A DNA stretch of 29,487 nt from a virus, in the IMG/VR virus record IMGVR_UViG_3300005264_000060, positions 1 to 29,487 of that record; one strand, 5' to 3'. Below, one piece after another: positions 20-23,255 of the stretch. Position 1 is the first letter of the stretch, and every line of letters begins with the position of its first letter. The notes below the pieces were generated by a model. That model did no database searches, had not been told where the DNA came from, and was given only the letters and a program-made list of their open reading frames with translations. The translations under genes and the position numbers were made by a program.

Positions 20-196
20 TTATTTCAAGTATTTTTTTATTATATTTCTTTTATAATTCCTTGTAAGTCTTTTTGATAATAATTTGACACTGAGAAATGA
101 TGTTGAAATAAAATTAAAATTTCTAATATCATCATCACTACCATACTTTTCAATTAAATTTTTTAACTTATTAATTTCTATAGAAGTTATAGACAT
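20..196 (-). CDS. Small basic protein of unknown function (58 aa)
   Basis: This 58-residue frame begins MSITSIEINKLKN and ends in the lysine-rich stretch RNIIKKYLK. Its ATG lies 10 bases inside the end of the upstream RNA ligase gene, so the two are probably translationally coupled; no separate promoter is visible. The protein is rich in Lys, Asn and Ile, has no transmembrane segment, signal peptide or cysteine motif, and I do not recognise its family. Downstream of its stop only 19 bases remain in the window. Support is the intact frame, the phage-typical overlap and the absence of any competing frame. Function unknown. Confidence 0.6.
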   Translation of the reverse strand: MSITSIEINKLKNLIEKYGSDDDIRNFNFISTSFLSVKLLSKRLTRNYKRNIIKKYLK

Positions 197-1110
197 TTAT
201 TCAACCATTTTACTACTATTTTACTAAAATTAAAAATATCTTTATCTTGTTTTTTAGATAAATTAATAGTTTTATATTCAGGATAATCTTTAATAAAATC
301 TTTTCTTACATCAATAAAATATTCTTTAATATAATTTCCAATTTGTTTTGGAAATTCAATAAGTCCCATTTTACTAAATAAATTATTAAGTCTTGCTTCA
401 GTAACATAATTAAGTACCAATGGTCTCCATGATTCAACTATTGGGTCAGTTTTTTTGGGTATTTTATTTCTTTTTTCAGAATTTTCTTTGAACTTTTTAG
501 ATTTCTTTTTTAAAATAAATCTATCATGCCCAAAAAATAATTCTTTTGAACTTGGTCTACCAATAATACCTTCTGCAATATTACCTGATTTATTAAGAAT
601 TTTTGAAATAAGAGTTTCTACTTCAAAATTTATAAATTCTTCAAAAGTTACATTTCTCTTAATAACAGGTACCACAGGTAAATTAAAATCTATCATAAGA
701 TTTTCAAAAAACTCAAAATCTTTATATACTGATCCTATTTTAATATCAAAAAAATTAATTAGTTTTTCATTTTGATATTTAACACCTTTATTAACCCCTT
801 TACCAAACAATTCACCATATAATCTTACTGGATAATTTGCGTTTTTTGTAAAATTTATTATATCATCAAGATTAAGTTTTTTAACGGCATCTTGCCAATT
901 ATAAAAATTTTCATCAGAACTAAGTATACGTTTCCTTGTACAAAATTCAACTGTACCGTCAATGTCAATAGCAATTTGAAAATTAGCACCATGAAGTTTT
1001 TCTAGAATAATAAAAGATATTTTATCCAAATCATCAAATTTTTTTTTAAATTTTTTAATAAATTTTTGTCTATAAGAATTTTCAATATCATAATATTTGT
1101 TAAATTCCAT
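187..1110 (-). CDS. rnlB: T4 Rnl2-like RNA ligase (double-strand nick-sealing type)
   Basis: ATP-dependent RNA ligase of the covalent nucleotidyltransferase superfamily, closest in motif layout to T4 RNA ligase 2, which seals nicks in duplex RNA through a lysyl-AMP intermediate. Motif I is EKLHGANF (residues 37-44, nucleophile Lys38), matching the EK-hG-N pattern of Rnl2. Motif III is YGELFGKG (98-105), motif IV EGIIGRP (180-186) and motif V LKKKS (200-204). The length, 307 aa, is slightly under that of T4 Rnl2 (about 334). The C-terminal third is the likely Rnl2-specific domain. It starts its own unit behind a TTGACA-type promoter and overlaps the next small ORF by 10 bases. It is the first of two RNA ligases in the window; the other is Rnl1-like, as in T4, which also has both. 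A kinetoplastid-type editing ligase relationship is the only realistic alternative. Confidence 0.9.
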   Translation of the reverse strand: MEFNKYYDIENSYRQKFIKKFKKKFDDLDKISFIILEKLHGANFQIAIDIDGTVEFCTRKRILSSDENFYNWQDAVKKLNLDDIINFTKNANYPVRLYGELFGKGVNKGVKYQNEKLINFFDIKIGSVYKDFEFFENLMIDFNLPVVPVIKRNVTFEEFINFEVETLISKILNKSGNIAEGIIGRPSSKELFFGHDRFILKKKSKKFKENSEKRNKIPKKTDPIVESWRPLVLNYVTEARLNNLFSKMGLIEFPKQIGNYIKEYFIDVRKDFIKDYPEYKTINLSKKQDKDIFNFSKIVVKWLNKCL

Positions 1111-1142
1111 AAATAACCTCTTTTTTAAATGATTAATGATTA

Positions 1143-1171
1143 ATATTAAATAAAATAATATTATATGTCAA
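1143..1171 (-). promoter_or_regulatory. Sigma70-like promoter for the Rnl2-type ligase
   Basis: On the minus strand a TTGACA -35 (1166-1171) is followed after 17 bases by TAATAT (1143-1148). The -35 sits directly beyond the stop codon of the M15 peptidase gene. A 13-bp inverted repeat ATTAATGATTAAT (1132-1144) lies around the expected start point. The -10 is only a 4/6 match, so the call is tentative. Confidence 0.45.
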
Positions 1172-1172
1172 G

Positions 1173-1676: not shown

Positions 1677-1685
1677 TTATTCACC

Positions 1686-2444: not shown

Positions 2445-2473
2445 TTTATTTAAATTCCTTATTTTATTTCATA

Positions 2474-4507: not shown

Positions 4508-4888
4508 TTATTCACCTTTATACTTTTCACAAACAATTAATTCAACTTTTGATGATTGTTTACAATCAAGTTCACATTTTTGACAAATAGCATTTATATA
4601 TTTCCACCAATATTTTTTGGTTTCTTTATTACTATTATCAGATGGTAATTCATTTATAAATAATAATTTTTTAATACCCATTAACGATAAATAATCTTTT
4701 ACTTCTTTTTTTGTTAATTTTAATCCAAATAATTTATGTTTATCATCAAAATTTAAATATAAATCAATATTTTTAATATCTTCAATTTTTTTAACATTTT
4801 TTAATGGTAAAAATTTTGGTTTTGTTTTATGAAATATAAAGTCTCCTTCAAATACTTTATTACCTTTCATTATAACAATAGATTTCAT
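4508..4888 (-). CDS. Unknown protein with C-terminal cysteine cluster (126 aa)
   Basis: I do not recognise this 126-aa protein. Its N-terminal part is lysine-rich and mixed alpha/beta in appearance; the C-terminal quarter carries CQKCELDCKQSSKVELIVC, four cysteines that could bind one zinc ion. It is translationally coupled to its neighbours: the start overlaps the previous gene by ATGA, and the stop abuts the helicase start. The position immediately before the helicase in one operon suggests a replication-related accessory role, for example a loader or a regulator, but no motif supports a specific function. Confidence 0.7.
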   Translation of the reverse strand: MKSIVIMKGNKVFEGDFIFHKTKPKFLPLKNVKKIEDIKNIDLYLNFDDKHKLFGLKLTKKEVKDYLSLMGIKKLLFINELPSDNSNKETKKYWWKYINAICQKCELDCKQSSKVELIVCEKYKGE

Positions 4889-5109
4889 ATAATCTCCTTT
4901 AAATACAATTCTTTAGCAATATTATCCATAAGTATATCTAAATTTGTAATATTTGTCAATTCAGTTTCATTCATTATATTATAATGATAATATAACTTTC
5001 CTTTTGTAAAACCAATTCCATATAATGATATTATCAATCCATTAAATTCAGTATCAAATAATTTTAATACATATAAGTCATCATCATGTTCAAGTATTTT
5101 AAATTCCAT
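4885..5109 (-). CDS. Unknown small protein (74 aa), first gene of the helicase operon
   Basis: A short acidic protein beginning MEFKILEHDDDLYVLKLFD, with predicted beta-strand character and no recognised family. It is the first gene of the leftward helicase unit, downstream of a TTGATT/TATACT promoter and with AAAGGAA upstream of the ATG. Its end contains AAGGAG, serving as the ribosome binding site for the next gene, whose ATG overlaps its TGA. Function unknown. Confidence 0.65.
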   Translation of the reverse strand: MEFKILEHDDDLYVLKLFDTEFNGLIISLYGIGFTKGKLYYHYNIMNETELTNITNLDILMDNIAKELYLKEII

Positions 5110-5140
5110 TTCAGATCAGTTCCTTTCTATTTTTTTTTAT

Positions 5141-5169
5141 AGTATACATTATTTAATAAAAAAAATCAA
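5141..5169 (-). promoter_or_regulatory. Sigma70-like promoter, leftward helicase operon
   Basis: Minus strand TTGATT (5164-5169), 17-base spacer, TATACT (5141-5146). The predicted start is about 25 bases before the ATG at 5109. It shares the 119-bp intergenic region with the rightward uvsY promoter. Confidence 0.6.
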
Positions 5170-5170
5170 C

Positions 5171-5207
5171 TTTACATTATCAATACAGTATGTTATCATT
5201 ATAAATA
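5171..5207 (+). promoter_or_regulatory. Rightward uvsY-uvsW promoter: sigma70-like plus TATAAATA late motif
   Basis: Plus strand TTTACA (5171-5176), 17-base spacer, TATCAT (5194-5199), immediately followed by an exact T4-late octamer TATAAATA (5200-5207) 21 bases before the uvsY ATG. In T4, uvsW is a late gene and uvsY has middle and late expression, so a dual promoter fits established biology. An AAGGAG site precedes the ATG. Confidence 0.6.
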
Positions 5208-5228
5208 CATATATTCAAGGAGAAATAA

Positions 5229-5678
5229 ATGACAACATTAGACGAAAAATTGTTATTAAAAATTCAAAATGATATTGATGAAAATGATATTTTATTAAAA
5301 TTATATCAAGATTATAAAATTAATGATTTACTCAAATTTAATGAATTTAATTTTTCAGAAAAAGTAAAAGATCAACCTTTTATTTCTGAACAATTTAGAT
5401 TATTATACCTTAAAGAAAAACATAATTTATTAAAAATAACTGATATATTTGAAAAAACTCAAGGTAAATTATATGATCACTATAAATTTGAATCTGAAAA
5501 ACCATTAACAAAAATAGAAATAGAAAAATATTATTTACCAAAAGATAAAGATTTAGGTGCTATTAAAAAACTAATATTAAAACAAGAACTTAGAACAGAT
5601 TTCTTTGAATCAGTTTGGAAAGCATTAGATCAACTAGCATGGAAAATGAAAATGTTCTATCAAGCGGAGAATAATTAA
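5229..5678 (+). CDS. uvsY: UvsY-like recombination mediator
   Basis: A 149-aa charged, largely alpha-helical protein directly upstream of uvsW, the T4 arrangement. T4 UvsY (137 aa) forms a ring that helps load the UvsX recombinase on gp32-coated single-stranded DNA. The N-terminal half is helical with a basic central segment (LYLKEKHNLLK), and the C-terminal helix FFESVWKALDQLAWKMKMFYQ resembles the final helix of UvsY, which ends with a similar IKHM-F-A pattern. Sequence similarity is weak by eye, so the call depends on order, size and this C-terminus. Its stop overlaps the uvsW start (TAATG), indicating coupling. Confidence 0.7.
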   Translation: MTTLDEKLLLKIQNDIDENDILLKLYQDYKINDLLKFNEFNFSEKVKDQPFISEQFRLLYLKEKHNLLKITDIFEKTQGKLYDHYKFESEKPLTKIEIEKYYLPKDKDLGAIKKLILKQELRTDFFESVWKALDQLAWKMKMFYQAENN

Positions 5679-7108
5679 TGTCAGATGATGTTCATTTAAA
5701 ATTAGTTGGAAAAAAAATAGTAATAGATAGTGATAATTTCAGATATTTAAATGATATTGCAAACCATTTCTCTTATTATGTTAAAAATTATAGATTTATG
5801 CCTCGTTTTATGTCTGGTTCATGGAATGGTAAGACATCTTTATTTAATAAGTCATCAAGAAAACTACCATTTGGTCTATTAGATGATCTTATAAAATTTA
5901 CATTAACTAAATACGATGATTTAAATTTGACAGTCAATGATAACATTAAAGAATTATTTTGTCCACCTAAACGTGAACCTATATATGATTTATTATATTA
6001 TCCTTATTGGTACCAAGAAGAAGTAATAGAAAGTGCTTTAAAACATAGTAAAGGTATTTTTCGGATGCCAACTGCAAGTGGAAAAAGTTTGTCGATCACC
6101 TATATTATTAAGACATTATTACCATTTAGTAATAAACAAATGATAATTGTACCAAATTTAGGACTTATTAAACAATTTTATGATGATTTAATTGAATATG
6201 GAATGTCTGAAAATCTTCTTGGTAAAGTTAATTCTACACATAAACAATTTGATAAACCTATTGTAATATCGACATGGCAAAGTCTCAAAAATAATCAACA
6301 TGAAGTACCAAAATTTGATACTGTTATAGTTGATGAGGTTCATGGTGCAAAAGGTAAAGTTTTAAAAAACATAATAAAACAATCTACTGCCCAATATATA
6401 TTTGGATTTACAGGTACAATACCTGATCACCCACTTGAAGAACAAGAAGTTAAATCATATATAGGACCAATTCTTAAAGAATATTCCAATAAAGAAATTG
6501 CCGATGGTGGTTATATATCCAAAGGTAATATTAATGTTGTTAATATTAAATATAAACAAAAATTTTCAAAAGATTATAATATTATGATAGAAGAAACATT
6601 TAATCATCCACTTAGATTAAATGTTATTAGATCAATTATTAATAATGCAGACGGTTCTATATTATTACTTGTTGGAAAAGTTGAAAAAGAAGGTGATGTT
6701 TTAAAAGAAATGCTTGAAAATTATCTTAAAGGAAAAACTATTAAATTTTTATCAGGTAGAGATGATGCTAACACACGTGCTAAATGGCAAAAAAAAGTTC
6801 ATGATAAAAAAAATATTGTATTAATCGCCACATATGGGATATTTCAAGCTGGTATTAATATAAAATCACTTAAACACTTAATTCTTGTTAGTTCGTTCAA
6901 AAGTAATATAAGGGTATTACAAAGTGTAGGCAGGGCTCTCAGAATGTATTTTAATAAAGAAGATTCAGGTGCATTTATATGGGATTTAGTCGATGACACC
7001 AAAATTATTAAAAGACATGGTAAACAAAGAATGAATTTTTATGAAAGGGAATCTTTTAATATTAATGAATTTGATGTCATCGAAGGTAAAACAATTAAGA
7101 TTTCTTAG
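5678..7108 (+). CDS. uvsW: UvsW-like superfamily 2 DNA/RNA helicase
   Basis: SF2 helicase matching T4 UvsW, which unwinds R-loops and branched recombination intermediates and helps switch replication from origins to recombination. An N-terminal domain of about 105 residues precedes the motor. Motif I is PTASGKS (131-137), motif II DEVH (219-222), motif III FTGT (244-247), and motif VI QSVGRALR (415-422). The 476-aa length is shorter than T4 UvsW plus UvsW.1 (587), the missing part being C-terminal. It is the last gene of a two-gene rightward unit, and its 3' end overlaps the convergent gene at 7095-7451 by 14 bases, with no terminator visible. Confidence 0.93.
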   Translation: MSDDVHLKLVGKKIVIDSDNFRYLNDIANHFSYYVKNYRFMPRFMSGSWNGKTSLFNKSSRKLPFGLLDDLIKFTLTKYDDLNLTVNDNIKELFCPPKREPIYDLLYYPYWYQEEVIESALKHSKGIFRMPTASGKSLSITYIIKTLLPFSNKQMIIVPNLGLIKQFYDDLIEYGMSENLLGKVNSTHKQFDKPIVISTWQSLKNNQHEVPKFDTVIVDEVHGAKGKVLKNIIKQSTAQYIFGFTGTIPDHPLEEQEVKSYIGPILKEYSNKEIADGGYISKGNINVVNIKYKQKFSKDYNIMIEETFNHPLRLNVIRSIINNADGSILLLVGKVEKEGDVLKEMLENYLKGKTIKFLSGRDDANTRAKWQKKVHDKKNIVLIATYGIFQAGINIKSLKHLILVSSFKSNIRVLQSVGRALRMYFNKEDSGAFIWDLVDDTKIIKRHGKQRMNFYERESFNINEFDVIEGKTIKIS

Positions 7109-7451
7109 ACATATTTTTTGCTTTTATTTTTGCTTTTTCAAATGCTTCTTTTTTTACTGATTCAATTTCTTCTTGAATTTTTTTTAATGATTCTACTGCA
7201 CTTTTCTTTTTTGATTTACCATAAATATCAAAAAAACATTCACCTACTACTTTATTAAATGATTCTTTATCAACACCATCAGGATAATCAAATTCTAATT
7301 CAACTTCTTCTTTTGTATCATCAGTAAATTCAACTGGTAATTTAATATGAACATATTTACCCTTAAATTCACCCATTAAAATTTTAAAATTTAACATATT
7401 ATTATTTTTAATTAATAATTGATATTGTTTTTGCTCTTGTTCTTTTAACAT
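7095..7451 (-). CDS. Unknown charged protein (118 aa), last gene of leftward replication operon
   Basis: The protein starts with MLKEQEQKQYQLL at an ATG preceded by AAGGAGATAAT, so the first methionine rather than the internal one is chosen. Residues 19-60 look beta-stranded (FKILMGEFKGKYVHIKLPVEF), and the C-terminal 45 residues are a lysine/glutamate-rich helix, probably coiled coil. I recognise no family. It is convergent with uvsW and overlaps its last 14 bases. Its location at the end of the clamp operon hints at a DNA-metabolism role only by association. Confidence 0.65.
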   Translation of the reverse strand: MLKEQEQKQYQLLIKNNNMLNFKILMGEFKGKYVHIKLPVEFTDDTKEEVELEFDYPDGVDKESFNKVVGECFFDIYGKSKKKSAVESLKKIQEEIESVKKEAFEKAKIKAKNMSKKS

Positions 7452-7460
7452 ATTATCTCC

Positions 7461-8015
7461 TTATATTTCTGCTATTATTTTTTTCTTCCACAATTTTTTT
7501 AATTCATTAAAAAAATCTATTTGTAATATATCAGTTTTATCAAGAAAAATTTTATATAGAGCACCTGTTTGTGTATTACCATATTCTTGTAATTCTACAT
7601 GTGCAGATATGATATTATCAGCAAAATTATTAGCTAAGTAGTTTCTAACAGATATATTATTTGGTATATCAAACATTTTATTTGTTTTTTTATTTAATAA
7701 AATTTCTCTATGTTGTAATCTTTTTTTAATAATATTTTTTAATTGTATCCATTTCATTCCTTCTTTAGACATACCACTACTTATACCTATTAAAATATCA
7801 CCATTAAAATATATATCATCAGAATTAAACATAGTATTTTTATCATCAGATTTAAAAAATTTTATATCATATTCAGGATAAAAACAAAGAGTAAAATATA
7901 ATACTGATTGATCATGATCAAAATAATTATCATGATCATTAAAAAATTTTAATACATTTTTAATACCACTATCAACTATCTTTATTGATTTATTCTCATA
8001 TTTATCTGTTTTCAT
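7461..8015 (-). CDS. Unknown protein in the clamp operon (184 aa)
   Basis: A 184-aa soluble protein with no motif I can name. It has a hydrophobic mixed core (DQSVLYFTLCFYPEYDIKF, DILIGISSGMSKEG) and a Lys-rich C-terminus (FFNELKKLWKKKIIAEI). The ATG lies inside the last codons of the upstream small gene (14-base overlap), which implies coupled translation. Nine bases separate it from the next gene. Although clamp-loader and translational-repressor genes lie here in T4, it does not match gp62 (found at 10052-10396) or RegA in length or sequence. Confidence 0.65.
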   Translation of the reverse strand: MKTDKYENKSIKIVDSGIKNVLKFFNDHDNYFDHDQSVLYFTLCFYPEYDIKFFKSDDKNTMFNSDDIYFNGDILIGISSGMSKEGMKWIQLKNIIKKRLQHREILLNKKTNKMFDIPNNISVRNYLANNFADNIISAHVELQEYGNTQTGALYKIFLDKTDILQIDFFNELKKLWKKKIIAEI

Positions 8016-8223
8016 TTGTTTTCATATTTCTATCAAAAGCATCTTGTGTAGTATCAACATCAAAACATATTTTCATAAATCTTGCTGCTGCCTTATTTGA
8101 TGATACATGATCCATACCTTCATCTTGTGAACATACTGCAATATTACAATGCCAACCCCATGCATACATGAAATCCTTTTGTAATTTATCTTTAATAATA
8201 TCAAACGCATTAGATATATCCAT
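8002..8223 (-). CDS. Conserved small phage protein (73 aa)
   Basis: The frame is open from an ATG at 8232, but the AAAGG site touches that codon; the second ATG at 8223 sits nine bases from it, so I take 8223 as the start (protein MDISNAFDIIKDKL...). The segment DFMYAWGWHCNIAVCSQDEG followed by SNKAAARFMKICFDVDT is, from memory, typical of a small conserved protein found in many unrelated tailed phages; its function is unknown. A Trp/His/Cys-rich centre is notable. It overlaps the next gene by 14 bases. The 126 bases upstream contain no convincing gene. Confidence 0.75.
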   Translation of the reverse strand: MDISNAFDIIKDKLQKDFMYAWGWHCNIAVCSQDEGMDHVSSNKAAARFMKICFDVDTTQDAFDRNMKTNENR

Positions 8224-9113: not shown

Positions 9114-9284
9114 TTATTTAAGTGATACACCTAAAATTCTTTTAACAATTTTTTTGTAAGATACCCAATCCCCATTATTTACTATTTTTTCAATTTCTTT
9201 AATTTCTTTAGCTGTTGCTTTTTGATATAGTTGAACCATTTCAAGAGCACCAATATTTCCTTTATATGCTGCTTCATCAATCAT
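9114..9284 (-). CDS. Small conserved phage protein (56 aa)
   Basis: A 56-codon gene lying between the 254-aa protein and the clamp gene. Its ATG is inside the end of the preceding frame (8-base overlap), with GGAG a short distance upstream. The product starts MIDEAAYKGNIGALEMVQLY and ends DWVSYKKIVKRILGVSLK; it is helical and charged. The final SYKKIVKRILGV block looks like a motif recurring in small phage proteins, but I know no function. The gene leaves only 14 bases before the clamp ATG, which explains the apparent gap. Confidence 0.75.
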   Translation of the reverse strand: MIDEAAYKGNIGALEMVQLYQKATAKEIKEIEKIVNNGDWVSYKKIVKRILGVSLK

Positions 9285-10041
9285 TTAGCATTTCTCCATC
9301 AACTAATCGTTTGAGATTATCAACATCAGCATTATCAATCAATTTTCTATACTGTTTCATCTGTTCATCTGTTGATTCATTCATAAATTTTGTTAATTGA
9401 TCAAATTTGATAATATTATCAAGACTATCACTATTCTCTTCATAATATTTTTTCCATCCACCTTTAACCAATGCATTCATTGCCCATTTACCCATATTAT
9501 TAGTAGGTCTTTTAACATGTTGAAAATCTTCTTTCAGAATAAAAGGTCTACCATTAACTTTTGTGGACATTTGACCATCTTTACCAAATATAGGATTACC
9601 AAATTTACGAATTTTCCCATAACCCGGAAACCCATCAGGACAAGTATTTGTACCTATTAAAATACCTTCTTTACCACCTTTTGGTATAAACAAAATACTA
9701 TCTTGTTCATATTCTGCACCCAACTTTTTAAGCGTCTTTTTAAGATTGCCTGTATCATTGATATCTACCACAAGAAAAACATCTTCACCTACTTGTTTTT
9801 CATTTTTTGATCCATAATTTTCTATATATGAACCTTTAACTTTTGTAATAGAAAACTTTTTAGATAGTAATGATGCAAGTAAAACCTTATTTCTGGCTTT
9901 GTTTTCACCTTTGGTATATGGTTGACCATCACCACATTCTCTTGCATCTCTAAATGCTGTAATTGTTCCAGAATCATGTTTTTGCATATGATTCCACACT
10001 TTTGATAATGAATTTTCATTTATATAATCTTTAAATCTCAT
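9277..10041 (-). CDS. Conserved phage protein, possibly DUF3293-related (254 aa)
   Basis: The N-terminus MRFKDYINENS is of the kind seen on many T4-type phage proteins. The core reads GTITAFRDARECGDG, NKARNKVLLASLL, VKGSYIENYG, GEDVFLVVDI, LGAEYEQDSILFIPKGG and ILIGTN (residues about 25-130). This TAF-N-L-GxYIE-G-QDSI pattern resembles the DUF3293 type of small alpha/beta protein, a tentative match made from memory. The remaining C-terminal 120 residues are not recognised. It is transcribed between gp62 and the 56-aa gene within the clamp operon. No function can be given. Confidence 0.7.
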   Translation of the reverse strand: MRFKDYINENSLSKVWNHMQKHDSGTITAFRDARECGDGQPYTKGENKARNKVLLASLLSKKFSITKVKGSYIENYGSKNEKQVGEDVFLVVDINDTGNLKKTLKKLGAEYEQDSILFIPKGGKEGILIGTNTCPDGFPGYGKIRKFGNPIFGKDGQMSTKVNGRPFILKEDFQHVKRPTNNMGKWAMNALVKGGWKKYYEENSDSLDNIIKFDQLTKFMNESTDEQMKQYRKLIDNADVDNLKRLVDGEMLND

Positions 10042-10051
10042 TTCATATCCT

Positions 10052-10396
10052 TTAAATTGATATCATAGCCTCATTTTTACTAATATTATATGTATTACAT
10101 AAGATATCGATTTCTTTTTGTTTTTTCTTATTTACTTTACCCTTTTTAATCCATTTAATATATCTTCTTTTTTTAGGTATTTTCTTGAAGAAATATTTAA
10201 ATACAAGTTCATCAGGTAAAGAGTACAACATTTGATTAATCTTATCAACATAAAACATTAACTCCTTTTCATGTGATAACCACAGAGTTAACATATATGC
10301 ACTGGCAATTTTTTTATCATATTTGATATCTATTTTATTATTTATCGCATTTATTGTTCCAAAAAGATCATTTGATATTTTTTTATATTTTTTCAT
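10052..10396 (-). CDS. 62: Clamp-loader small subunit, gp62-like (short form)
   Basis: The 114-aa protein aligns by eye with the N-terminal half of T4 gp62, the subunit that joins the gp44 tetramer to load gp45. Shared features are F-x-x-I-x-AINNK (residues 11-22 here), a hydrophobic middle helix followed by FKYFFKKIPKKRRYIKWIKKG (T4 has FNYLMAAVPRGKRYGKWAK), and the closing YNISKNEAM (T4 YQVNTNDAI). T4 gp62 has 187 aa, so the C-terminal part is missing or reduced. It lies in the same operon as gp44, separated from it only by a broken methyltransferase gene. Confidence 0.75.
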   Translation of the reverse strand: MKKYKKISNDLFGTINAINNKIDIKYDKKIASAYMLTLWLSHEKELMFYVDKINQMLYSLPDELVFKYFFKKIPKKRRYIKWIKKGKVNKKKQKEIDILCNTYNISKNEAMISI

Positions 10397-10412
10397 ATAA
10401 AATCACCTATGT

Positions 10413-11654: not shown

Positions 11655-11669
11655 ATTACATATATCCTT

Positions 11670-12755
11670 TTATTTAATAAAATTAAATAATAAATTAACT
11701 TTTTTATCTATTGATAAATTTTCAATAATATCTACTATGTTATTACCTTTTTTTAAACTAAATAGTATACCTGATATTGGTGTATCTTTAACTATCATAG
11801 CAAATTCTTTTTGATCTTTAATGTGTTTAGTTTTATTCCATAAATTATTAATTGAATCAATAAACTTATTATATGCATTAGTGTATTTGTTCATAATATC
11901 AGTATATTCAGAAAAATAACACAAAAATTCTTCTTCTTCTTGTTTAAATGCCAATTCAACAAATCCCTTTACCGAATTTTCACCTTCACCTTTCAATCTA
12001 TGAATTGCTACATAAGATGCATTTTTAATTTTAATTCTTTTTTGTGTATATTTGTCAAAACAAACAACTCCTTCATCCATAGCATCTCTACCTTCAACAA
12101 ATTTTATAATATCTTTTGGATTGTTTAAATTATAACTCGGGGCCAGACCATCAGTTTGCATATTAAAATCTGTTTTAGTATTAATACAATCATAATCAAC
12201 ATATAATCCAGTCAAATTATTTCTAATAGCTAATAAAGTTGTAGTTGTTTCATAATATCTTGTCACTATTCTATTTTCTGGTGAAGTAATTTCAAATATA
12301 TAAGTATGATGTTTTGAACAAAATTCAAAACCATGTTCTAAATCAGTACCAATAGCGTCAAGAAATAAATTGTAATAAGTTTTATCCATAGGTGTTTTAC
12401 CTTCTGCAAAAGCCGTTCCTCTTGTAGCAGCACACCATTTATTACCATCATGATACACATTAATTAAAGATCCATCTAATTTATTAAAAACAATACAATT
12501 ATTCCAGTTAAAACTATCTTTATCATCTCCTTCACCATAATTAAAAAATCTATCAAAACTTCTACATAATACTTTATAATCAGGCAATGATAAAATAAGT
12601 CCTCTACATTCAAGTACAATAGGATGAAATTTTGGTTTAGAGTCTATACGATAATTAAACACTATTCTATCATCATAAACTTTTGTATGAATACCAAAAG
12701 ATTTACTAATATCATCAATTGTTCCTGTCTGTAAAAATTTCTGTGTTTCTAACAT
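11670..12755 (-). CDS. rnlA: T4 Rnl1-like RNA ligase (tRNA repair type)
   Basis: A 361-aa ATP-dependent RNA ligase of the Rnl1 family (T4 Rnl1 374 aa), which joins 3'-OH and 5'-phosphate ends in single-stranded RNA and in T4 repairs tRNA cut by the PrrC anticodon nuclease. Motif I is FNKLDGSL (residues 90-97), nucleophile Lys92, the KxDGS form of Rnl1. ECRGLI (49-54) is the upstream conserved arginine motif; FEITSPENRIVTRY is motif IIIa-like, and EGVVCFD plus KRIKIKN are motifs IV and V. The C-terminal helical region is tRNA-specific in T4. It has its own TTGACA/TATATT promoter and sits 15 bases ahead of gp44. Confidence 0.92.
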   Translation of the reverse strand: MLETQKFLQTGTIDDISKSFGIHTKVYDDRIVFNYRIDSKPKFHPIVLECRGLILSLPDYKVLCRSFDRFFNYGEGDDKDSFNWNNCIVFNKLDGSLINVYHDGNKWCAATRGTAFAEGKTPMDKTYYNLFLDAIGTDLEHGFEFCSKHHTYIFEITSPENRIVTRYYETTTTLLAIRNNLTGLYVDYDCINTKTDFNMQTDGLAPSYNLNNPKDIIKFVEGRDAMDEGVVCFDKYTQKRIKIKNASYVAIHRLKGEGENSVKGFVELAFKQEEEEFLCYFSEYTDIMNKYTNAYNKFIDSINNLWNKTKHIKDQKEFAMIVKDTPISGILFSLKKGNNIVDIIENLSIDKKVNLLFNFIK

Positions 12756-12778
12756 AATTATTTCCTTTAATTTTTTCC

Positions 12779-12807
12779 AATATACACGTTATTAAAAATT
12801 ATGTCAA
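12779..12807 (-). promoter_or_regulatory. Sigma70-like promoter for the rnlA/gp44 operon
   Basis: Minus strand TTGACA (12802-12807), 17-base spacer, TATATT (12779-12784); predicted start about 17 bases before the Rnl1 ATG, with AAAGGAAA in between. The -35 adjoins the stop codon of the dehydratase gene. Confidence 0.65.
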
Positions 12808-12814
12808 GTTATTT

Positions 12815-13875: not shown

Positions 13876-15315
13876 TCATTTTGGTATTACTAAATCTTTG
13901 TTATATTTTTTAAGTGTTTCCATCATAATTGCCTTTGGAGAAAAATCATCACATGACAATATACTTTTTAATATTGATGGTGAAAATCCAGATACTAAAC
14001 CAATATTTTTTGAATCAACAGTATCAGGTGAACCACCATACCCAACAAGATTCCAATAAACAATTTTTGGTCTTTTAAATCCAGCATCATCCCATTTTTT
14101 TAATGATTGTTCAACCTCTGTTAATACAGAATTTGAATTACTTTTACATCCAATAGAAAATTGCATATCTGAACAAATCAATAACATTGATGGCATATCA
14201 TTATTTGTAACATTAAACATTTTACCTGTTAATAATATTAAATCTAATGCTTTATCAATTCTTGTTGATCCACAAGCACCATTAAAAAAATTATTTCCAT
14301 CCCAATTATCAGTCGGAAATGTATCAGCAAAATTAGTGTTTGACCAATCAGTAAATATACTTTCGGATTCAAACTGGATAAACTTTTTATAAAATGGGTT
14401 ATTTTTTGATAATTTACCTGAACAATATAATGCTAAAGATGTTGATACATCATATGCTGTAGTACTATTAGATATAGATGATAACATTGATCCTGATGAA
14501 TCACAAAGAACCATAATATTATTATCAGTCATATAATTAGGAAGATTATCAAATTGAGCATTTGCTATATCTTTGTCACCATTAATAGCTGTCTTTTTAC
14601 AATCATGTGGAAACAACACATCAGCATTAATTGTAACTTTATTTGATTTTAAATCATTTTTATATTTTATCATTCCAATTTCATCATGATTAATAAATGC
14701 ACTATTATATCTTGACATTGCAACGGATGGTACATTTTTATATTTAATATCTGTCCATCTATTATCACACATTTTAGATTCAACAATATGGTCTTTTCTA
14801 ATACCTGAAAGAAGTCTTCTAAAATCACCCATATTTTTAACAAAACCAGTTTTTTTCAAATCAACATACAATGGAATATCAGTTCTTTTAGCCCATTTAG
14901 CTGCCAAAACATCTTTTTCAATTAATGCTTCATTCCAAACATAAACCGCATCTTTATGACAATCAGAATTAAATAATTCTCTCATATCATCCCAACGACC
15001 ATATTTTGGTATTAATTTTATATTTTGTCTAATCCAATTAACACCATTAGGTTGTTTAGATAACCATTTTAAACACTTTCTAAATCCACTTCTATTACCG
15101 GCACCACCACGACAATCTCTTACCCACAACAAAAGTTTAAAAGAAATTTCTTTATCAACTATCCAAGCACGTTGAAATAAATTTAAAATATCTTCAATAT
15201 TATTATAAAAATAACTTGATTGTGTTGTATTATATAAAGAACCTGCCTTTGAAAAAAATTCTACACAATGATCTAATGAATGTTCATATTGAACTGATTT
15301 TTCATTAGTTTTCAT
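13876..15315 (-). CDS. DUF2828/TROVE-like RNA-binding ring protein with vWA domain
   Basis: A 479-aa protein with the architecture of the DUF2828 family, which resembles Ro60/TROVE: an N-terminal helical-repeat ring and a C-terminal von Willebrand A domain. N-terminal signatures are LLLWVRDCRGGAGNRSGFRK (residues 61-80), IPKYGRWDD (102-110), AKWAKR (139-144), FRRLLSGIRK (165-174) and VPSVAMSRY (195-203). The vWA domain has an intact metal-ion site DSSGS (272-276; D-x-S-x-S) and later ICSDMQF. Ro60 proteins bind Y RNAs and misfolded RNAs and act in RNA quality control with nucleases. Here the gene follows a structured 340-bp noncoding region. The start at 15315 has GGGG upstream rather than AAGGAG. 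The exact target is unknown. Confidence 0.8.
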   Translation of the reverse strand: MKTNEKSVQYEHSLDHCVEFFSKAGSLYNTTQSSYFYNNIEDILNLFQRAWIVDKEISFKLLLWVRDCRGGAGNRSGFRKCLKWLSKQPNGVNWIRQNIKLIPKYGRWDDMRELFNSDCHKDAVYVWNEALIEKDVLAAKWAKRTDIPLYVDLKKTGFVKNMGDFRRLLSGIRKDHIVESKMCDNRWTDIKYKNVPSVAMSRYNSAFINHDEIGMIKYKNDLKSNKVTINADVLFPHDCKKTAINGDKDIANAQFDNLPNYMTDNNIMVLCDSSGSMLSSISNSTTAYDVSTSLALYCSGKLSKNNPFYKKFIQFESESIFTDWSNTNFADTFPTDNWDGNNFFNGACGSTRIDKALDLILLTGKMFNVTNNDMPSMLLICSDMQFSIGCKSNSNSVLTEVEQSLKKWDDAGFKRPKIVYWNLVGYGGSPDTVDSKNIGLVSGFSPSILKSILSCDDFSPKAIMMETLKKYNKDLVIPK

Positions 15316-16902: not shown

Positions 16903-17024
16903 CTAAATTTACTCCTCAATTTTAAACAATATTTACTTAAATCAGTTTTTATTTACCACAGGCATCAACAAAAAATACTGTCAATTTCGGAAAAATTCAT
17001 CAACAATCACTTTTTATTAATTTA

Positions 17025-18050
17025 CTAATTATAATATCCTAAAATAATTTCTTTAATTACATTGTTATCTTTTTTATTAAAAATTTTAAGATTTTCATCA
17101 TTAAGTTTATTATCGATTTCAATAATACCATCATAAATAAGTTTTTCAACTTTTTTAAAAGTTAACTTACCAAGTTTAATATCAAGAATTTCATTTGCAT
17201 TATATAAAGGATATTGAATATAACCACTATTAATTAATTGTTTCATTTGAAACAATGATCTTACTGCATGTGATAATGCCTTCCAATCAATACCATTATT
17301 TTTTTCTGCCTCTTCCGCCCTTTTACCATATTTTAAATAATCAGTGTTAATTCTTTTAATAAATTCAAGAAGTTTAATATTACCCTGATGAACTTTACCA
17401 CATAAAACTAATGATTTAACTGGATCATGACCATTTTTACTAATTAATTTAGTAAAACAATAAGAAGAATCAAAACATTTATTAATAATTTCATCAATAA
17501 CATATGATAATTTAATTTGTTTGATATCCATTTGAAGATTTGAAGATAATCCTTTAACTATTTCAGGAATTATGTCATTAACCTTTTTTAAAACACCAAG
17601 TCTTGACCCTTTAATTCCATATTTTTTTGCTTGTCCAATTGCATAACCAATAAATGATTTACAATGTTTAATATTAAATAATTTATTATATTGGTTATGA
17701 ATTTGACTCATTTGAGAATCACTATATTTAATAATTTCTGGATAAGTAAAAGAAAATAACAAATCAAGTGCGTTAGTTTCACCTTTTGAAACCAATTTAA
17801 GAAAGTAATGAAGTGACCATAATTGAACATCAATATCATCTTTTGTATTTTTGTTATTATCCCCCGTAGAAAATGTAATACTTTTACTTACATTCTGAAG
17901 TAATAATTGATCTTTAGATGGTAAAAATATTCCTTTATAATCAGTATCAGAATTAGGTGTATTAGTACCATATAAATGACTACCAAATTTAACAAAATAT
18001 ATTAATCTCACACCATGTTCATCACAAATATTTTGAACTTCATTTAACAT
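17025..18050 (-). CDS. RlaP-type polymerase-beta nucleotidyltransferase (RNA repair associated)
   Basis: A 341-aa protein of the PF10127 group, named RlaP for RNA-ligase-associated polymerase-beta-like proteins. The catalytic signature is FGSHLYGTNTPNSDTDYKGIF: Gly23-Ser24 and the metal-binding pair Asp35/Asp37. A helical C-terminal domain follows, including KGETNALDLLFS and NNGIDWKALSHAVRSLFQM, regular features of the group. Family members are linked by genome context to RNA ligases and are thought to add or modify nucleotides at RNA ends. In this window two RNA ligases and an HD-kinase fusion make the same association. It is last in a five-gene leftward unit headed by the HPr-kinase-like gene. 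Confidence 0.85.
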   Translation of the reverse strand: MLNEVQNICDEHGVRLIYFVKFGSHLYGTNTPNSDTDYKGIFLPSKDQLLLQNVSKSITFSTGDNNKNTKDDIDVQLWSLHYFLKLVSKGETNALDLLFSFTYPEIIKYSDSQMSQIHNQYNKLFNIKHCKSFIGYAIGQAKKYGIKGSRLGVLKKVNDIIPEIVKGLSSNLQMDIKQIKLSYVIDEIINKCFDSSYCFTKLISKNGHDPVKSLVLCGKVHQGNIKLLEFIKRINTDYLKYGKRAEEAEKNNGIDWKALSHAVRSLFQMKQLINSGYIQYPLYNANEILDIKLGKLTFKKVEKLIYDGIIEIDNKLNDENLKIFNKKDNNVIKEIILGYYN

Positions 18051-18927: not shown

Positions 18928-19752
18928 TTATAAAATATCATTTTTTATTTCTTTTAATATATCACCTGATAAATTAAAATATAAACTTTTTACTTCACAA
19001 TCTAACATATCTAATACATTACTAGTATAACTTTTTGATAAATTAAAAAAATCAACTCTAAAATCATTAAATATATTTTTGTAATTTTTGTAATTTTTAA
19101 TAAAGGAGATTTTATTTTTTTTTAATATATAAATTTTATCAATTCGACAATTTAGATTATTAACTTTATTATATGATCCATGTACCCAATGACCATACAT
19201 CTTATTATTATATATAACAGTTCTATCATCACATAATAACATCCAACCATCTTTTTCTAACATTTTTGTTAATGTTGATTTACCAGCACCAGATTCACCT
19301 AATAATAAAATACCTTTACCATTTTTATATAGACCATTACCATGAACAATCATACCATTATTTTTTAATAAATAAGGATACATCATAATATTATCAGAAT
19401 GAAACAAACATAATTGACTCATTATACCTTTATTATAGTATGGTTTCATTTGTTTTGGTATTAAAATTTTCCAATATGTATAAATATTATTTGATATTGC
19501 TTTTACATTATAAGGTTTATAATAATAAAATATATCATTATTACTTTCTTTTATTAGCCAATCATTATTATTTAATATAGTATTATATTTTTTTAATGGA
19601 TTTCGTATCCAATTAGTTACATGTTTAATAATAATATCTGGTGATGATGTTTTATTAAACTTAAATTTATGTATATTATCATCAAATACATTATTATATA
19701 GTGTAATGACTTTTATTACACACTTACCGAATTTATAATAATTACAATACAT
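18928..19752 (-). CDS. HPr-kinase-like P-loop protein
   Basis: A 274-aa protein with a Walker A loop GESGAGKST (residues 152-160) preceded by GNGLYKNGKGILL and followed by LEKDGWMLLCDDRTVI (165-180), the arrangement of the HprK C-terminal kinase domain (ligand-binding P-loop then h-hDD). The N-terminal 130 residues contain no recognised domain and are Asn/Tyr/Lys-rich. HPr kinase phosphorylates a serine of the sugar-transport protein HPr; bacterial paralogues of similar type occur near peptide- and capsule-modification genes. The phage substrate is unknown. The start overlaps no gene and is reached from a TTGATT/TATAAT promoter. Confidence 0.75.
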   Translation of the reverse strand: MYCNYYKFGKCVIKVITLYNNVFDDNIHKFKFNKTSSPDIIIKHVTNWIRNPLKKYNTILNNNDWLIKESNNDIFYYYKPYNVKAISNNIYTYWKILIPKQMKPYYNKGIMSQLCLFHSDNIMMYPYLLKNNGMIVHGNGLYKNGKGILLLGESGAGKSTLTKMLEKDGWMLLCDDRTVIYNNKMYGHWVHGSYNKVNNLNCRIDKIYILKKNKISFIKNYKNYKNIFNDFRVDFFNLSKSYTSNVLDMLDCEVKSLYFNLSGDILKEIKNDIL

Positions 19753-20570: not shown

Positions 20571-20661
20571 TCCAGAGTACTCTAATTGGAAAGAGGTTGC
20601 GCTGTTAACGCAATGTATACCCTAATAGGTTATGGTGGTTCAAATCCACTCTCTGGAGCCA
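20571..20661 (+). tRNA. tRNA-Asn (GUU) with an unusual long variable arm
   Basis: Acceptor stem TCCAGAG pairs with CTCTGGA; D-arm CTCT-8-AGAG; anticodon arm TTGCG-CTGTTAA-CGCAA gives anticodon GUU (Asn); T-arm GGTGG-TTCAAAT-CCACT; discriminator G73; CCA is encoded. U1-A72 and G73 agree with bacterial tRNA-Asn. The variable region is 20 bases and can form ATACC/GGT(T)AT with one bulge, a class II arm normally found only in Leu, Ser and Tyr tRNAs. Confidence 0.88.
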
Positions 20662-20670
20662 AAATTATAA

Positions 20671-20757
20671 GCAGAAGTGGTGGAATTGGTTTACACAAAG
20701 GACTTAAAATCCTTCCCTCTTATGAGGTTGAGAGTTCAAATCTCTCCTTCTGTACCA
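20671..20757 (+). tRNA. tRNA-Leu (UAA)
   Basis: Acceptor GCAGAAG with CTTCTGT (G-U at 1-72); D-arm GTG...CAC; anticodon arm AAGGA-CTTAAAA-TCCTT, anticodon UAA reading UUA, the favoured leucine codon in this AT-rich genome; class II variable arm CCTC-TTAT-GAGG; T-arm GAGAG-TTCAAAT-CTCTC; A73; CCA encoded. Nine bases follow tRNA-Asn. The 152 bases after it show no tRNA or gene. Confidence 0.92.
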
Positions 20758-20909
20758 AAATTTTATTATCAAGAAGTGATAAATATTATTGATTATGTTA
20801 AACACTAAAATTTAATTATATCTTAAAAAATGTAATGTTTATGATTTAACAGTAAACTAACACTATTGATTTATTATGATGAACATAAATGGAAATACTA
20901 TAATTATAA

Positions 20910-20988
20910 AGGGGATTGGTGAAGTGGTTTAACACGCCAGGTTTTGATCCTGGTATTTTCGTAGGTTCGAATCCTACATCCCCTTCCA
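20910..20988 (+). tRNA. tRNA-Gln (UUG)
   Basis: Acceptor AGGGGAT/ATCCCCT; D-stem GTG/CAC; anticodon arm CCAGG-TTTTGAT-CCTGG, anticodon UUG (CAA); T-arm GTAGG-TTCGAAT-CCTAC; CCA encoded. The 1-72 pair is A-U and the discriminator is U, both unlike E. coli tRNA-Gln. A TATAAT (20899-20904) lies just before it without a clear -35. Confidence 0.88.
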
Positions 20989-20995
20989 ATAAAAT

Positions 20996-21844
20996 ATGAT
21001 ATTAAACACTCTTGATACAAAAACAAAAACTTTTTATCATGAAATTAATGACAATTTCAATTATAATACTATATCAGTAATTGACTATGAAAATAATATA
21101 CATGGTGATAAAAAGAAAATTAATAATTCTAAAACATATATTACAGATATGAGTATTATTGATGATGATAATTTTTTATTATGTTATTATCATAGATTAT
21201 TAAAAAAAATCATATGTAAAATAATTAATATAGATGGTGTTAATGTTAATTCTGGTCAAATGTGTATTATTGATGATAATACACATACAACTGTTATGTC
21301 TCTTATATCTATATCTTCTACTCGTGCCATATTAACATATAATGATACTTTAAATAATGTTGGTAAATCATTACTTTTAAATATAAGCAATGATTTTATT
21401 ACAATTATAGAAAAATATATATTCGCATATGAAAATATTCCAGAACTAGCATCTTTTAAACTTTCAGATACAGAATTTGTTTTATTTTATCAATTAAAAA
21501 ATAGTGGTATTGTTAGGCTTATTGAAATAAAAAACGATCAATTAGAATTAAAAGAAGAACAATTATTTTATAAAAATAGTGATTTATGGGGTCTTAGTAT
21601 TCAACGTATTCATGATTATTTCATTTTAGTATTTATTGATTCAACTCAAAGACTTATATTAAAAATTATTACAGCAAATAAAAAACTTTCTTTTTCATCA
21701 GGAAGAATATATAATCAACCAGTTATAGATGGTAAATTTGAATTGGTAACTATTGACAATGAATTTGCTATATGTTATTTTAATAATACAGCTCAAATTA
21801 TTTCAATAACTGATGGTAAAATGATAAAACCTGAAAATTTATAG
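20996..21844 (+). CDS. Beta-propeller-like repeat protein (282 aa)
   Basis: About five degenerate repeats of 45-50 residues can be seen, each with a DDDNFLLCYYH / SSTRAILTYND / SDTEFVLFYQL / HDYFILVFIDS / DNEFAICYFNN core strand, then a strand pair ending in hhxIxxD. This is the pattern of short WD/Kelch-like blades found in phage fibre-associated and surface proteins. No signal peptide or enzymatic motif. The ATG lies seven bases after the CCA of tRNA-Gln and has no Shine-Dalgarno sequence; internal ATG codons have none either. After tRNA 3'-end processing, the message could be nearly leaderless. Confidence 0.65.
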   Translation: MILNTLDTKTKTFYHEINDNFNYNTISVIDYENNIHGDKKKINNSKTYITDMSIIDDDNFLLCYYHRLLKKIICKIINIDGVNVNSGQMCIIDDNTHTTVMSLISISSTRAILTYNDTLNNVGKSLLLNISNDFITIIEKYIFAYENIPELASFKLSDTEFVLFYQLKNSGIVRLIEIKNDQLELKEEQLFYKNSDLWGLSIQRIHDYFILVFIDSTQRLILKIITANKKLSFSSGRIYNQPVIDGKFELVTIDNEFAICYFNNTAQIISITDGKMIKPENL

Positions 21845-21873
21845 ATTGATATTATATATAAGGAGATCAAATT

Positions 21874-22185
21874 ATGGGTACAAGTGCTACTATAATAGTT
21901 GAAGGTGTTAACTATTGTAAACTTTATAAACATTGGGATGGTGGTGTAACATTCACTTTAAAATGGCTTGAAGATTTTAATAAAAAATTTACTGAAATTA
22001 GAGGTGAAGATTGTAGTTATAAAATGGCACAATTAATTAGAAGTTCAGCATTTGATTGTAAAAAATACCATCTTGATCCATCCAAAACTACAGGATGGGG
22101 TGTTATTAGAATAGATGATTATAATGGTAATTATATATATAATCTTAAAATAGATGGTACAGTAACAGTTAAAAAGGGGTATTAA
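21874..22185 (+). CDS. Conserved phage/bacterial protein of unknown function (103 aa)
   Basis: Behind AAGGAG, this protein starts MGTSATIIVEGVNYCKLYKH and has WDGGVTFTLKWLEDFNKKF, SYKMAQLIRSSAFD and TGWGVIRIDDYNGNYIYNLK. I recognise this MGTxATIxVEG-LYKHWDG-FAQLLRSSAFD-TGWG arrangement as a conserved protein of phages and bacteria without known function. Mixed alpha/beta; no catalytic signature I can name. It is six bases before the HD-kinase gene, so the two probably share a message. Confidence 0.8.
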   Translation: MGTSATIIVEGVNYCKLYKHWDGGVTFTLKWLEDFNKKFTEIRGEDCSYKMAQLIRSSAFDCKKYHLDPSKTTGWGVIRIDDYNGNYIYNLKIDGTVTVKKGY

Positions 22186-22190
22186 ATTTA

Positions 22191-23255
22191 ATGTTAAATA
22201 TCAAAATAGATATATTAAAGGCATTTCTTGATAATACAGAATTATTTGAATCTATGAATAGTTGTAATCATTATGAAAATAGTAATAATTTTAATCCTTA
22301 TCATCTTGAAGGTAGTCTTTGGACACATACCATGTTAGTATATAATGCTGCAAATTCAGAAGATTATATAGAATTAATAATGGCACTTTGTCATGATATT
22401 GGAAAAGTAATTACAAGAAAAGTTAATGATAATGGTAAAGTATCTTTTTATGGACATGCTGATGCATCAATTCAACCTACAATAGATTTTGTTAATTATT
22501 TGTATACAAAAAATATTATTAACAGAAAAGAATTTGATAATTTTTTAAAATTTGGTCTTCCTGCAATGGCTAATCATATGATATATTATAAAAATAGACA
22601 TAAACTTAATTATTTTAGTAATAATAATACCATCATAAAAAATTATTATAAAAAAATGAATTATATTGATAGTATTGGTTCTATTTGTGAAGATGATGAT
22701 GATGAAGAAAATGTTATAAAAGATTTTGTTCTTAAACCATTTGATAAAGACCAACCAACAATAACAATTTGGACCGGATTACCTGGATCTGGTAAAGATT
22801 ATCTTGCCAAAAAAACTGGGGACCCTATTGTATCATGGGATGATATAAGAGTAGAAATATACAAAAATTATGTATCTGAAAATTATATTAATATGATGAC
22901 GAATAAGGAAATTTATGAAAATGCATTTAAATATTGTAAAGAAAAAAATATTAATATTAATAAACTTATGAAAAGAAAAATTAATGATATTGTTAAAACT
23001 GAAAAAAATATCAATATTTGTAATACTTCATTAACAAGAAAATCTAGACGTAATATCATTAATACAATAAGTACAAAATATAATTATGTGATCAAACAAG
23101 TTTTTGTTCCTACTAAATTAATATATGAAAGAAATACTATAAGAGATAGTAAAACTGTACCAATTAATGTTATTAATAATATGATGAAAAATATGACAAT
23201 AGCAACTTATTTTGAAAAAAACATTAATAATATTGAATACATTTTAAATATTTAA
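22191..23255 (+). CDS. HD-domain phosphohydrolase fused to polynucleotide-kinase-like domain
   Basis: Two domains in 354 aa. The N-terminal HD domain (about 1-165) has LEGSLWTHTMLVYN (His46), LCHDIGK (His68-Asp69), FYGHAD (His89) and MANHM (His129), matching metal-dependent HD phosphohydrolases such as those fused to CCA-adding enzymes. The C-terminal domain (about 188-354) has Walker A GLPGSGKD (196-203), then VSWDDIR (214-220) and a helical lid, as in T4 polynucleotide kinase and relatives. Expected activity: 5'-OH phosphorylation by the kinase, with removal of 3' or 2',3'-cyclic phosphate by HD, that is, end healing before RNA ligation. An acidic linker EDDDDEENV separates the domains. Activities are inferred from motifs. 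Confidence 0.85.
   Translation: MLNIKIDILKAFLDNTELFESMNSCNHYENSNNFNPYHLEGSLWTHTMLVYNAANSEDYIELIMALCHDIGKVITRKVNDNGKVSFYGHADASIQPTIDFVNYLYTKNIINRKEFDNFLKFGLPAMANHMIYYKNRHKLNYFSNNNTIIKNYYKKMNYIDSIGSICEDDDDEENVIKDFVLKPFDKDQPTITIWTGLPGSGKDYLAKKTGDPIVSWDDIRVEIYKNYVSENYINMMTNKEIYENAFKYCKEKNININKLMKRKINDIVKTEKNINICNTSLTRKSRRNIINTISTKYNYVIKQVFVPTKLIYERNTIRDSKTVPINVINNMMKNMTIATYFEKNINNIEYILNI

What the first reader, a model, noticed from the sequence alone, without database searches (positions are those of the whole stretch)
187..23255. RNA repair network spread through the window
Two RNA ligases (Rnl2-like, 187-1110; Rnl1-like, 11670-12755), an RlaP-type nucleotidyltransferase (17025-18050), an HD-domain/polynucleotide-kinase fusion (22191-23255), a DUF2828/TROVE-like ring protein (13876-15315), a HAD phosphatase (28937 to edge) and three tRNA genes all lie within 30 kb. 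T4 pairs Rnl1 with Pnkp to reverse anticodon-nuclease damage. Here every step (end healing, sealing, possible nucleotide addition, RNA surveillance) has a candidate, with the HD domain taking the place of the Pnkp phosphatase. Catalytic motifs are seen; the joint pathway is inferred.
Basis: partly seen in the sequence, partly recalled or inferred. Interest (0 to 1): 0.78.

Follow-up and report, generated by a model that had tools for sequence, protein, structure and literature searches.

The report
Phage RNA-repair kit with HD-kinase
This virus of bacteria carries a set of enzymes that can mend cut tRNAs (an end-cleaning HD-kinase, a nucleotide adder and RNA ligases); the set is real and its core genes travel together in related phages, but the pathway was already proposed and parts of it are known from other phages.

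Summary
The window is a 29.5-kb, 23% GC fragment of a T4-like phage. Rnl2, Rnl1, RlaP, HD-kinase and DUF2828 genes and three tRNAs lie at the stated coordinates. The HAD gene is cut by the contig edge and lacks motif I.

The network is real for its core. Among 26 T4-like records chosen only by UvsW, Rnl1 occurs in exactly the 7 with T4-type Pnkp. RlaP occurs in 6 of those and in none of the other 19. Phages with the HD-kinase never carry a full T4 Pnkp. Of 25 such records after thinning near-duplicates, 18 have Rnl1, 12 of them within 5 kb. Several uncultivated phages carry overlapping HD-Pnk–RlaP–Rnl1 operons, one with Rnl2 close by. So the HD-kinase replaces Pnkp.

The periphery is weaker. 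DUF2828 has a predicted Ro60/TROVE fold but is usually found without these ligases. The HAD link is unproven.

Parts and scheme are known: the RM378 HD-PNK was characterised in 2005, and RlaP gap-filling with ATP-grasp ligases and TROVE was proposed in 2016–2021. This is an unusually complete member of a known kind. Untested: whether RlaP refills a nucleotide removed by a RloC-type nuclease.

The parts
187..1110 (-). Rnl2-family RNA ligase
   Evidence: PF09414 1.1e-18 and T4_Rnl2_C 3.3e-9; T4 Rnl2 structure 9e-13; motifs I, III, IV and V intact
11670..12755 (-). Rnl1-family RNA ligase (T4 gp63-like)
   Evidence: PF09511 4.1e-15; T4 Rnl1 structure 2.2e-17; 64-65% identical orthologue in sister contig G050
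13876..15315 (-). DUF2828/DUF7788 protein with predicted TROVE/Ro60-type fold (helical ring plus vWA with MIDAS DxSGSM)
   Evidence: Pfam about 1e-25; AlphaFold2 pLDDT 82; Foldseek top hits 9kop, 2nvo, 9nen
17025..18050 (-). RlaP nucleotidyltransferase (pol-beta fold; T4 nrdC.11 family)
   Evidence: PF10127 4.8e-17; phrog_388 4.9e-68; catalytic GS...DxD...D seen
20571..20661 (+). tRNA-Asn(GUU), unusual long variable arm, CCA encoded
   Evidence: ARAGORN and Rfam
20671..20757 (+). tRNA-Leu(UAA)
20910..20988 (+). tRNA-Gln(UUG)
22191..23255 (+). HD-Pnk: N-terminal HD phosphohydrolase fused to C-terminal 5'-OH polynucleotide kinase
   Evidence: phrog_6931 2.5e-39; 26-sequence alignment with invariant HD and kinase residues; pLDDT 90 model with PNK kinase fold; profile matches PDB PNKs and HD proteins
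28937..29485 (-). HAD-type phosphatase fragment (N-terminal motif I lost at contig edge); role in repair unproven
   Evidence: phrog_415 2.4e-4; motifs II-IV-like residues
1686..2444 (-). Calcineurin-like phosphoesterase two genes from Rnl2; possible extra end-healing activity, unproven
   Evidence: PF00149 2.3e-14; same gene order in G050

Best explanation
The phage carries a tRNA (RNA) end-healing, gap-filling and sealing kit against host anticodon nucleases. HD-Pnk removes the 2',3'-cyclic phosphate or 3'-phosphate with its HD domain and phosphorylates the 5'-OH with its kinase domain, doing the work of T4 Pnkp. RlaP adds back any nucleotide lost at the break. Rnl1 seals the anticodon-loop cut, while Rnl2 seals nicks in duplex RNA. 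Phage tRNAs replace losses. The TROVE-like DUF2828 may hold damaged RNAs but is optional. Shown here: family membership, intact motifs, non-random co-occurrence, operonic linkage in relatives, and replacement of Pnkp by HD-Pnk. Inferred: substrates, order of steps, and the anti-nuclease purpose.
For: All catalytic motifs are present. HD-Pnk set: 30 of 38 records have Rnl1. After thinning near-duplicates, 18 of 25 have Rnl1, 12 within 5 kb; combined positional p 9e-6 without the window. 12 of 25 have RlaP, 7 within 5 kb, p 8e-4. Operons with short gaps or overlaps: L011 and L039 HD-Pnk–RlaP–Rnl1, L012/L014/L026/L028/L029 HD-Pnk–Rnl1–RlaP, L021 Rnl2...HD-Pnk–RlaP–Rnl1, L025 RlaP–HD-Pnk. Background of 26 UvsW phages: Pnkp and Rnl1 in the same 7 records (Fisher 1.5e-6), RlaP in 6 of them and 0 of 19 others. 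No HD-Pnk record holds a full Pnkp. RM378 HD-PNK has measured kinase and 3'-phosphatase activity (Blondal 2005, cited in PMC1997131). RlaP gap-filling was proposed in PMC7824862. RloC excises the wobble nucleotide (PMC2610378).
Against: In the window itself the genes are dispersed over 23 kb on both strands (HD-Pnk on +, the others on -), not one operon. Records are related, so Fisher values overstate independence, and the HD-Pnk set consists largely of fragments. Rnl2 proximity to HD-Pnk is not significant (p 0.12). RlaP is missing from the Campylobacter phages and RM378, which have HD-Pnk and Rnl1. The P-loop GKD is non-canonical. In D. radiodurans HD-Pnk the measured 3'-phosphatase could not be ascribed to the HD residues (PMC1997131). 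No RNA substrate or host nuclease is known for this phage.
Confidence: 0.72

Rival explanations
1. The genes are ordinary, independently acquired T4-like accessory genes with separate jobs: Rnl1 for tail-fibre attachment (T4 gp63), Rnl2 for mRNA or other RNA, HD-Pnk for DNA or RNA ends generally. There is no common pathway.
For: Rnl1 is annotated in phages as RNA ligase and tail fibre attachment catalyst; the window genes are dispersed; Rnl2 and DUF2828 are not significantly linked to HD-Pnk.
Against: Co-occurrence and overlapping operons of HD-Pnk, RlaP and Rnl1, and the swap of Pnkp for HD-Pnk while Rnl1 is kept.
Confidence: 0.2
2. RlaP is not a gap filler but a protein- or RNA-modifying nucleotidyltransferase (MNT-like antitoxin or toxin regulator), for instance AMPylating a host RNase, so that the kit neutralises the nuclease as well as the damage.
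For: Pol-beta NTases of the MNT class include AMPylating antitoxins (own knowledge); no direct RlaP activity was found in the papers read; RlaP is absent from some HD-Pnk + Rnl1 phages.
Against: Repeated operon position next to PNK and ligase and distribution tracking ligases (PMC7824862).
Confidence: 0.2
3. DUF2828 is a central RNA-surveillance ring of this pathway (Ro60/Rsr-like platform).
For: Predicted fold matches TROVE/Ro60 best; in the UvsW set all 3 carriers are Pnkp/Rnl1 phages; in the sister phage G050 RlaP–SprT–DUF2828–epimerase–Rnl1 keeps its order.
Against: Only 3 of 28 HD-Pnk records have it, and 21 of 22 DUF2828 contigs lack detectable Rnl1; RtcB is in 4 of 22. It is common in Mycobacterium, Listeria and Staphylococcus phages.
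Confidence: 0.25

Closest known systems
T4 Pnkp (PseT) / Rnl1 (gp63) tRNA repair against PrrC
   Same: Kinase plus 3'-phosphoesterase heals, Rnl1 seals; T4-like phages also carry Rnl2 and an RlaP homologue (nrdC.11)
   Different: Here healing is by an HD-kinase fusion with the domain order reversed and an unrelated phosphatase fold; a TROVE-like protein is added
Rhodothermus phage RM378 HD-PNK and Rnl1
   Same: Same HD-kinase fusion, full-length alignment, Rnl1 7.5 kb away; enzyme characterised in 2005 (cited in PMC1997131 and PMC2610378)
   Different: RM378 lacks detectable RlaP, Rnl2 and DUF2828
Campylobacter Fletchervirus/Firehammervirus HD-Pnk plus RNA ligase
   Same: HD-Pnk in 51 Campylobacter phage records, about 1 kb from an RNA ligase in F357; DUF2828 in a Fletchervirus record
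   Different: No RlaP or strong Rnl2; often annotated poly(A) polymerase
RlaP / ATP-grasp ligase / TROVE RNA-repair systems (Burroughs and Aravind 2016; Iyer et al. 2021, PMC7824862)
   Same: Same proposed cooperation, including HD-like phosphatases, RlaP restoring lost nucleotides and ROT/TROVE proteins in phages
   Different: The passages read do not describe HD-Pnk–RlaP–Rnl1 overlapping operons
Bacterial HD-Pnk (D. radiodurans DRB0098; Runella HD-Pnk from memory)
   Same: N-terminal HD plus C-terminal PNK
   Different: Cellular, linked to other partners (DRB0098-0100 operon)

Membership tests
HD-Pnk | N-terminal HD phosphohydrolase with H...HD...H...D metal ligands | tested here: met
   H46, H68-D69, H129 and D160 invariant in 26 sequences; profile hits HD parts of CCA/poly(A) polymerase and Cas3-HD structures
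HD-Pnk | C-terminal PNK kinase: P-loop, general-base Asp, Arg motif | tested here: met
   GLPGSGK, D217, R286 and R314; Foldseek hits Pnkp1 and Cth/T4 PNK. P-loop ends GKD, not GKS/T
HD-Pnk | 2',3'-phosphoesterase and 5'-kinase activity on RNA | not testable with these tools
   needs enzyme assay
T4-type Pnkp | C-terminal HAD phosphatase fused to N-terminal kinase | tested here: not met
   phrog_505 match stops at the kinase half; architecture is HD-kinase
Rnl1 RNA ligase | Nucleotidyltransferase motifs KxDGS, FE, EG, KxK and RNA_lig_T4_1 profile | tested here: met
Rnl2 RNA ligase | KxHGxN motif plus T4_Rnl2_C domain | tested here: met
   below the NCBIfam equivalog cut-off (112.8 against 197 bits)
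RlaP | PF10127 pol-beta core with GS and three carboxylates | tested here: met
RlaP | Association with an RNA ligase | tested here: met
TROVE/Ro60 | Helical ring plus vWA domain with MIDAS | tested here: met
   predicted fold only; Foldseek E 1e-6 to 4e-4 against 9kop, 2nvo and 9nen; DxSGSM invariant; no sequence-level match above chance
TROVE/Ro60 | Binding of misfolded or Y/tRNA-like RNA | not testable with these tools
   needs RNA-binding assay
HAD 3'-phosphatase of the Pnkp/SAK type | DxD nucleophile motif I | tested here: inconclusive
   motif lies beyond the contig end; only phrog_415 2.4e-4

The most novel reading that the evidence does not exclude
HD-Pnk–RlaP–Rnl1 is a dedicated three-step phage machine for tRNAs that have lost a nucleotide (RloC-type wobble excision): HD-Pnk heals, RlaP refills the gap, Rnl1 seals. 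That would be a repair pathway able to reverse damage thought to defy phage tRNA repair.
Probability: 0.35. Interest if true: 0.68.

Novelty: new member of a known kind. Interest (0 to 1): 0.42.

Why it matters
Kaufmann's group argued that RloC's removal of the wobble base could defy phage repair (PMC2610378). A phage operon that sets a nucleotidyltransferase beside the end-healing and sealing enzymes is the simplest candidate answer, and the overlapping HD-Pnk–RlaP–Rnl1 genes found here give a compact set to express and assay. The swap of Pnkp for HD-Pnk with Rnl1 retained also suggests that end healing is the conserved need and the enzyme fold is replaceable.

Tried and rejected
Single-protein scan of viral contigs with the HD-Pnk found nothing. 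Clamp-loader (A2) and six-member UvsW (A4) alignments had no motif usable for scanning; a three-member UvsW alignment worked. No near-identical phage in the phage collection. Bacterial genome scan with HD-Pnk returned hits covering only part of the HD half, mostly in unrelated bacteria; only one of these was examined further: a Campylobacteraceae MAG contig that holds a stand-alone HD protein without kinase. PADLOC gave no meaningful defence match. Idea that DUF2828 depends on RtcB instead of Rnl1: only 4 of 22. Idea that the HAD is the Pnkp phosphatase: no alignment to a T4-type Pnkp. Idea that the GUU tRNA is a tRNA-Ser with a changed anticodon: its acceptor ends (UCC...GGA, G73) suit tRNA-Asn, so it reads as tRNA-Asn with an enlarged variable region (sequence inspection).
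Full report
What is there. The window is a 29,487-base virus record with 23.3% GC. It encodes T4-type replication genes (DnaB-like helicase, UvsY, UvsW, sliding clamp, clamp loader gp44/gp62), so it is a fragment of a T4-like phage. No DNA-level relative is in the phage collection.

The listed genes are correct. Rnl2 (187-1110), Rnl1 (11670-12755), RlaP (17025-18050) and DUF2828/DUF7788 (13876-15315) pass curated or strong cut-offs, and Rnl1 and Rnl2 align with solved T4 ligases. The 22191-23255 protein is only weakly matched by Pfam but matches phrog_6931 (2.5e-39). Its relatives are the HD-kinase of Rhodothermus phage RM378 and proteins of Campylobacter phages often labelled poly(A) polymerase. 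In 26 aligned homologues the HD ligands and kinase residues are invariant or nearly so. The model (pLDDT 90) has a helical N-terminal half followed by a PNK-type kinase (Foldseek: Pnkp1, C. thermocellum and T4 PNK); the profile also hits the HD regions of poly(A)/CCA polymerases and Cas3-HD. The P-loop ends GKD; L057 shares it. The HAD ORF is truncated at the contig edge and its membership in a repair family is unproven.

Test of the joint pathway. I took 26 T4-like records chosen only by UvsW (14 phage records and 12 IMG/VR contigs of 64 kb or more). T4-type Pnkp (full phrog_505) is present in 7, and Rnl1 in exactly those 7 (Fisher 1.5e-6). RlaP exceeds its cut-off in 6 of the 7 and 0 of 19 others, and Rnl2 in 6 of 7 against 2 of 19. 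One of the 14, Vibrio phage nt-1, had first been fetched through its Rnl2 and DUF2828 genes, so it is not a blind choice. I then took records selected only for HD-Pnk. Rnl1 is in 30 of 38, the window included. After thinning near-duplicates, 18 of 25 have Rnl1 and 12 of 25 have RlaP. Rnl1 lies within 5 kb in 12 of 18 (combined positional p 9e-6 without the window) and RlaP within 5 kb in 7 of 12 (8e-4). Rnl2 is not significantly near (0.12). None of the 27 HD-Pnk records tested holds a full Pnkp, so HD-Pnk looks like a non-orthologous replacement. Caveats: the phages share ancestry, many records are fragments, and the tests are not tree-corrected.

Operons. In uncultivated phages the genes stand together: L011 HD-Pnk 4731-5798, RlaP 6091-7086, Rnl1 7064-8158; L039 HD-Pnk 9935-10942, RlaP 10927-11931, Rnl1 11885-12997 (both junctions overlap with the start codons taken); L012, L014, L026, L028 and L029 HD-Pnk, Rnl1, RlaP; L021 Rnl2 6502-7515, HD-Pnk 9962-11023, RlaP 11396-12499, Rnl1 12691-13785; L025 RlaP and HD-Pnk overlapping by four bases. 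Pfam confirms the members tested: RlaP and Rnl1 of L011, and all named genes of L021 and L039. A sister phage, G050 (36 kb), keeps the order RlaP–SprT–DUF2828–epimerase–Rnl1–gp44 with 50-68% identity for most genes, and has an RNA ligase of a different Rnl2-type sequence at the Rnl2 position. The window therefore carries, in dispersed form, a gene set that is operonic elsewhere.

DUF2828. The predicted fold (pLDDT 82) matches a TROVE protein, Deinococcus Rsr and human Ro60 as its three best PDB hits, though no sequence search finds them above chance. Genomically it is not tied to these ligases: 3 of 28 HD-Pnk records, 3 of 26 background records (all Pnkp/Rnl1 phages), Rnl1 in 1 of 22 (searched with the window's own protein, so distant Rnl1 could be missed) and RtcB in 4 of 22 DUF2828 contigs. 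It probably works like an RNA-binding ring, but it is an optional member.

Mechanism. Host anticodon nucleases leave 2',3'-cyclic phosphate and 5'-OH. HD-Pnk would heal both ends, RlaP would add back a lost nucleotide, Rnl1 would seal the loop, Rnl2 duplex nicks; phage tRNAs back this up. Shown: genes, motifs, co-occurrence, operons. From the literature: RM378 HD-PNK has kinase and 3'-phosphatase activity, without mutational proof of the HD active site (PMC1997131); T4 Pnkp/Rnl1 reverse PrrC damage, and RloC excises the wobble nucleotide, which may defy repair (PMC2610378); RlaP is predicted to restore lost nucleotides and tracks ligases in jumbo phages, some of which also use HD-like phosphatases and TROVE proteins (PMC7824862). 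Inferred: that these proteins act in one pathway on tRNA in this phage.

Novelty. Each part and the general scheme were described before. New here, as far as the papers I could read show, are this phage as an unusually full set, the overlapping HD-Pnk–RlaP–Rnl1 operons, and the clean Pnkp/HD-Pnk exclusion. The 2016 source paper (Burroughs and Aravind) was not available, so it may already list such operons.

Noticed in passing
20571-20661 (+): tRNA-Asn(GUU) with Asn-like acceptor ends but a variable region enlarged by roughly 15 nt (foldable small arm), unusual for a tRNA-Asn; not seen in the sister contig.
   Followed up: partly
9277-10041 (-): S-adenosylmethionine lyase-like protein (PF23780, 1e-11) inside the clamp/clamp-loader cluster; G050 has one there and further copies near 21.8-22.9 kb. 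Possibly anti-restriction or anti-BREX.
   Followed up: no
18928-19752 (-): HprK-like P-loop kinase (HprK_rel_A, ScmC-like, about 1e-8) in a phage, near RlaP.
   Followed up: no
26094-27524 (-): 476-aa protein with weak DHH/RecJ match and no PHROG match.
   Followed up: no
23428-24246 (+): Thymidylate synthase-like protein matched only over its C-terminal half; possibly a modified-base enzyme.
   Followed up: no
20996-21844 (+): 282-aa protein without any Pfam or PHROG match between the tRNA genes and HD-Pnk.
   Followed up: no
L314:15908-19027: Sister phage G050 has a tandem run of paralogues all starting MKIRNGFVSNSSSSSF; also a split DNA polymerase with tRNA genes between the parts and a protein ending in a PEP-CTERM-like tail.
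   Followed up: no
L018 (record G013, 84333-85421): An HD-Pnk phage without Rnl1 carries RtcB about 9 kb away, suggesting a different sealing enzyme.
   Followed up: partly
L317:295-780: A Campylobacteraceae MAG contig has a stand-alone HD protein about 40% identical to the phage HD half, near a gene that looks like a WYL-type regulator: possible cellular source.
   Followed up: partly
L021 (record G016, 16997-17539 and 23903-24409): Two RlaP genes in one phage, one on each side of HD-Pnk.
   Followed up: no
L087:2646-13301: Vibrio phage D69 packs a tRNA nucleotidyltransferase, RlaP-like nucleotidyltransferase, tRNA-His guanylyltransferase, Rnl1 and polynucleotide kinase within 11 kb: the T4-Pnkp-like version of the same kit.
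   Followed up: partly
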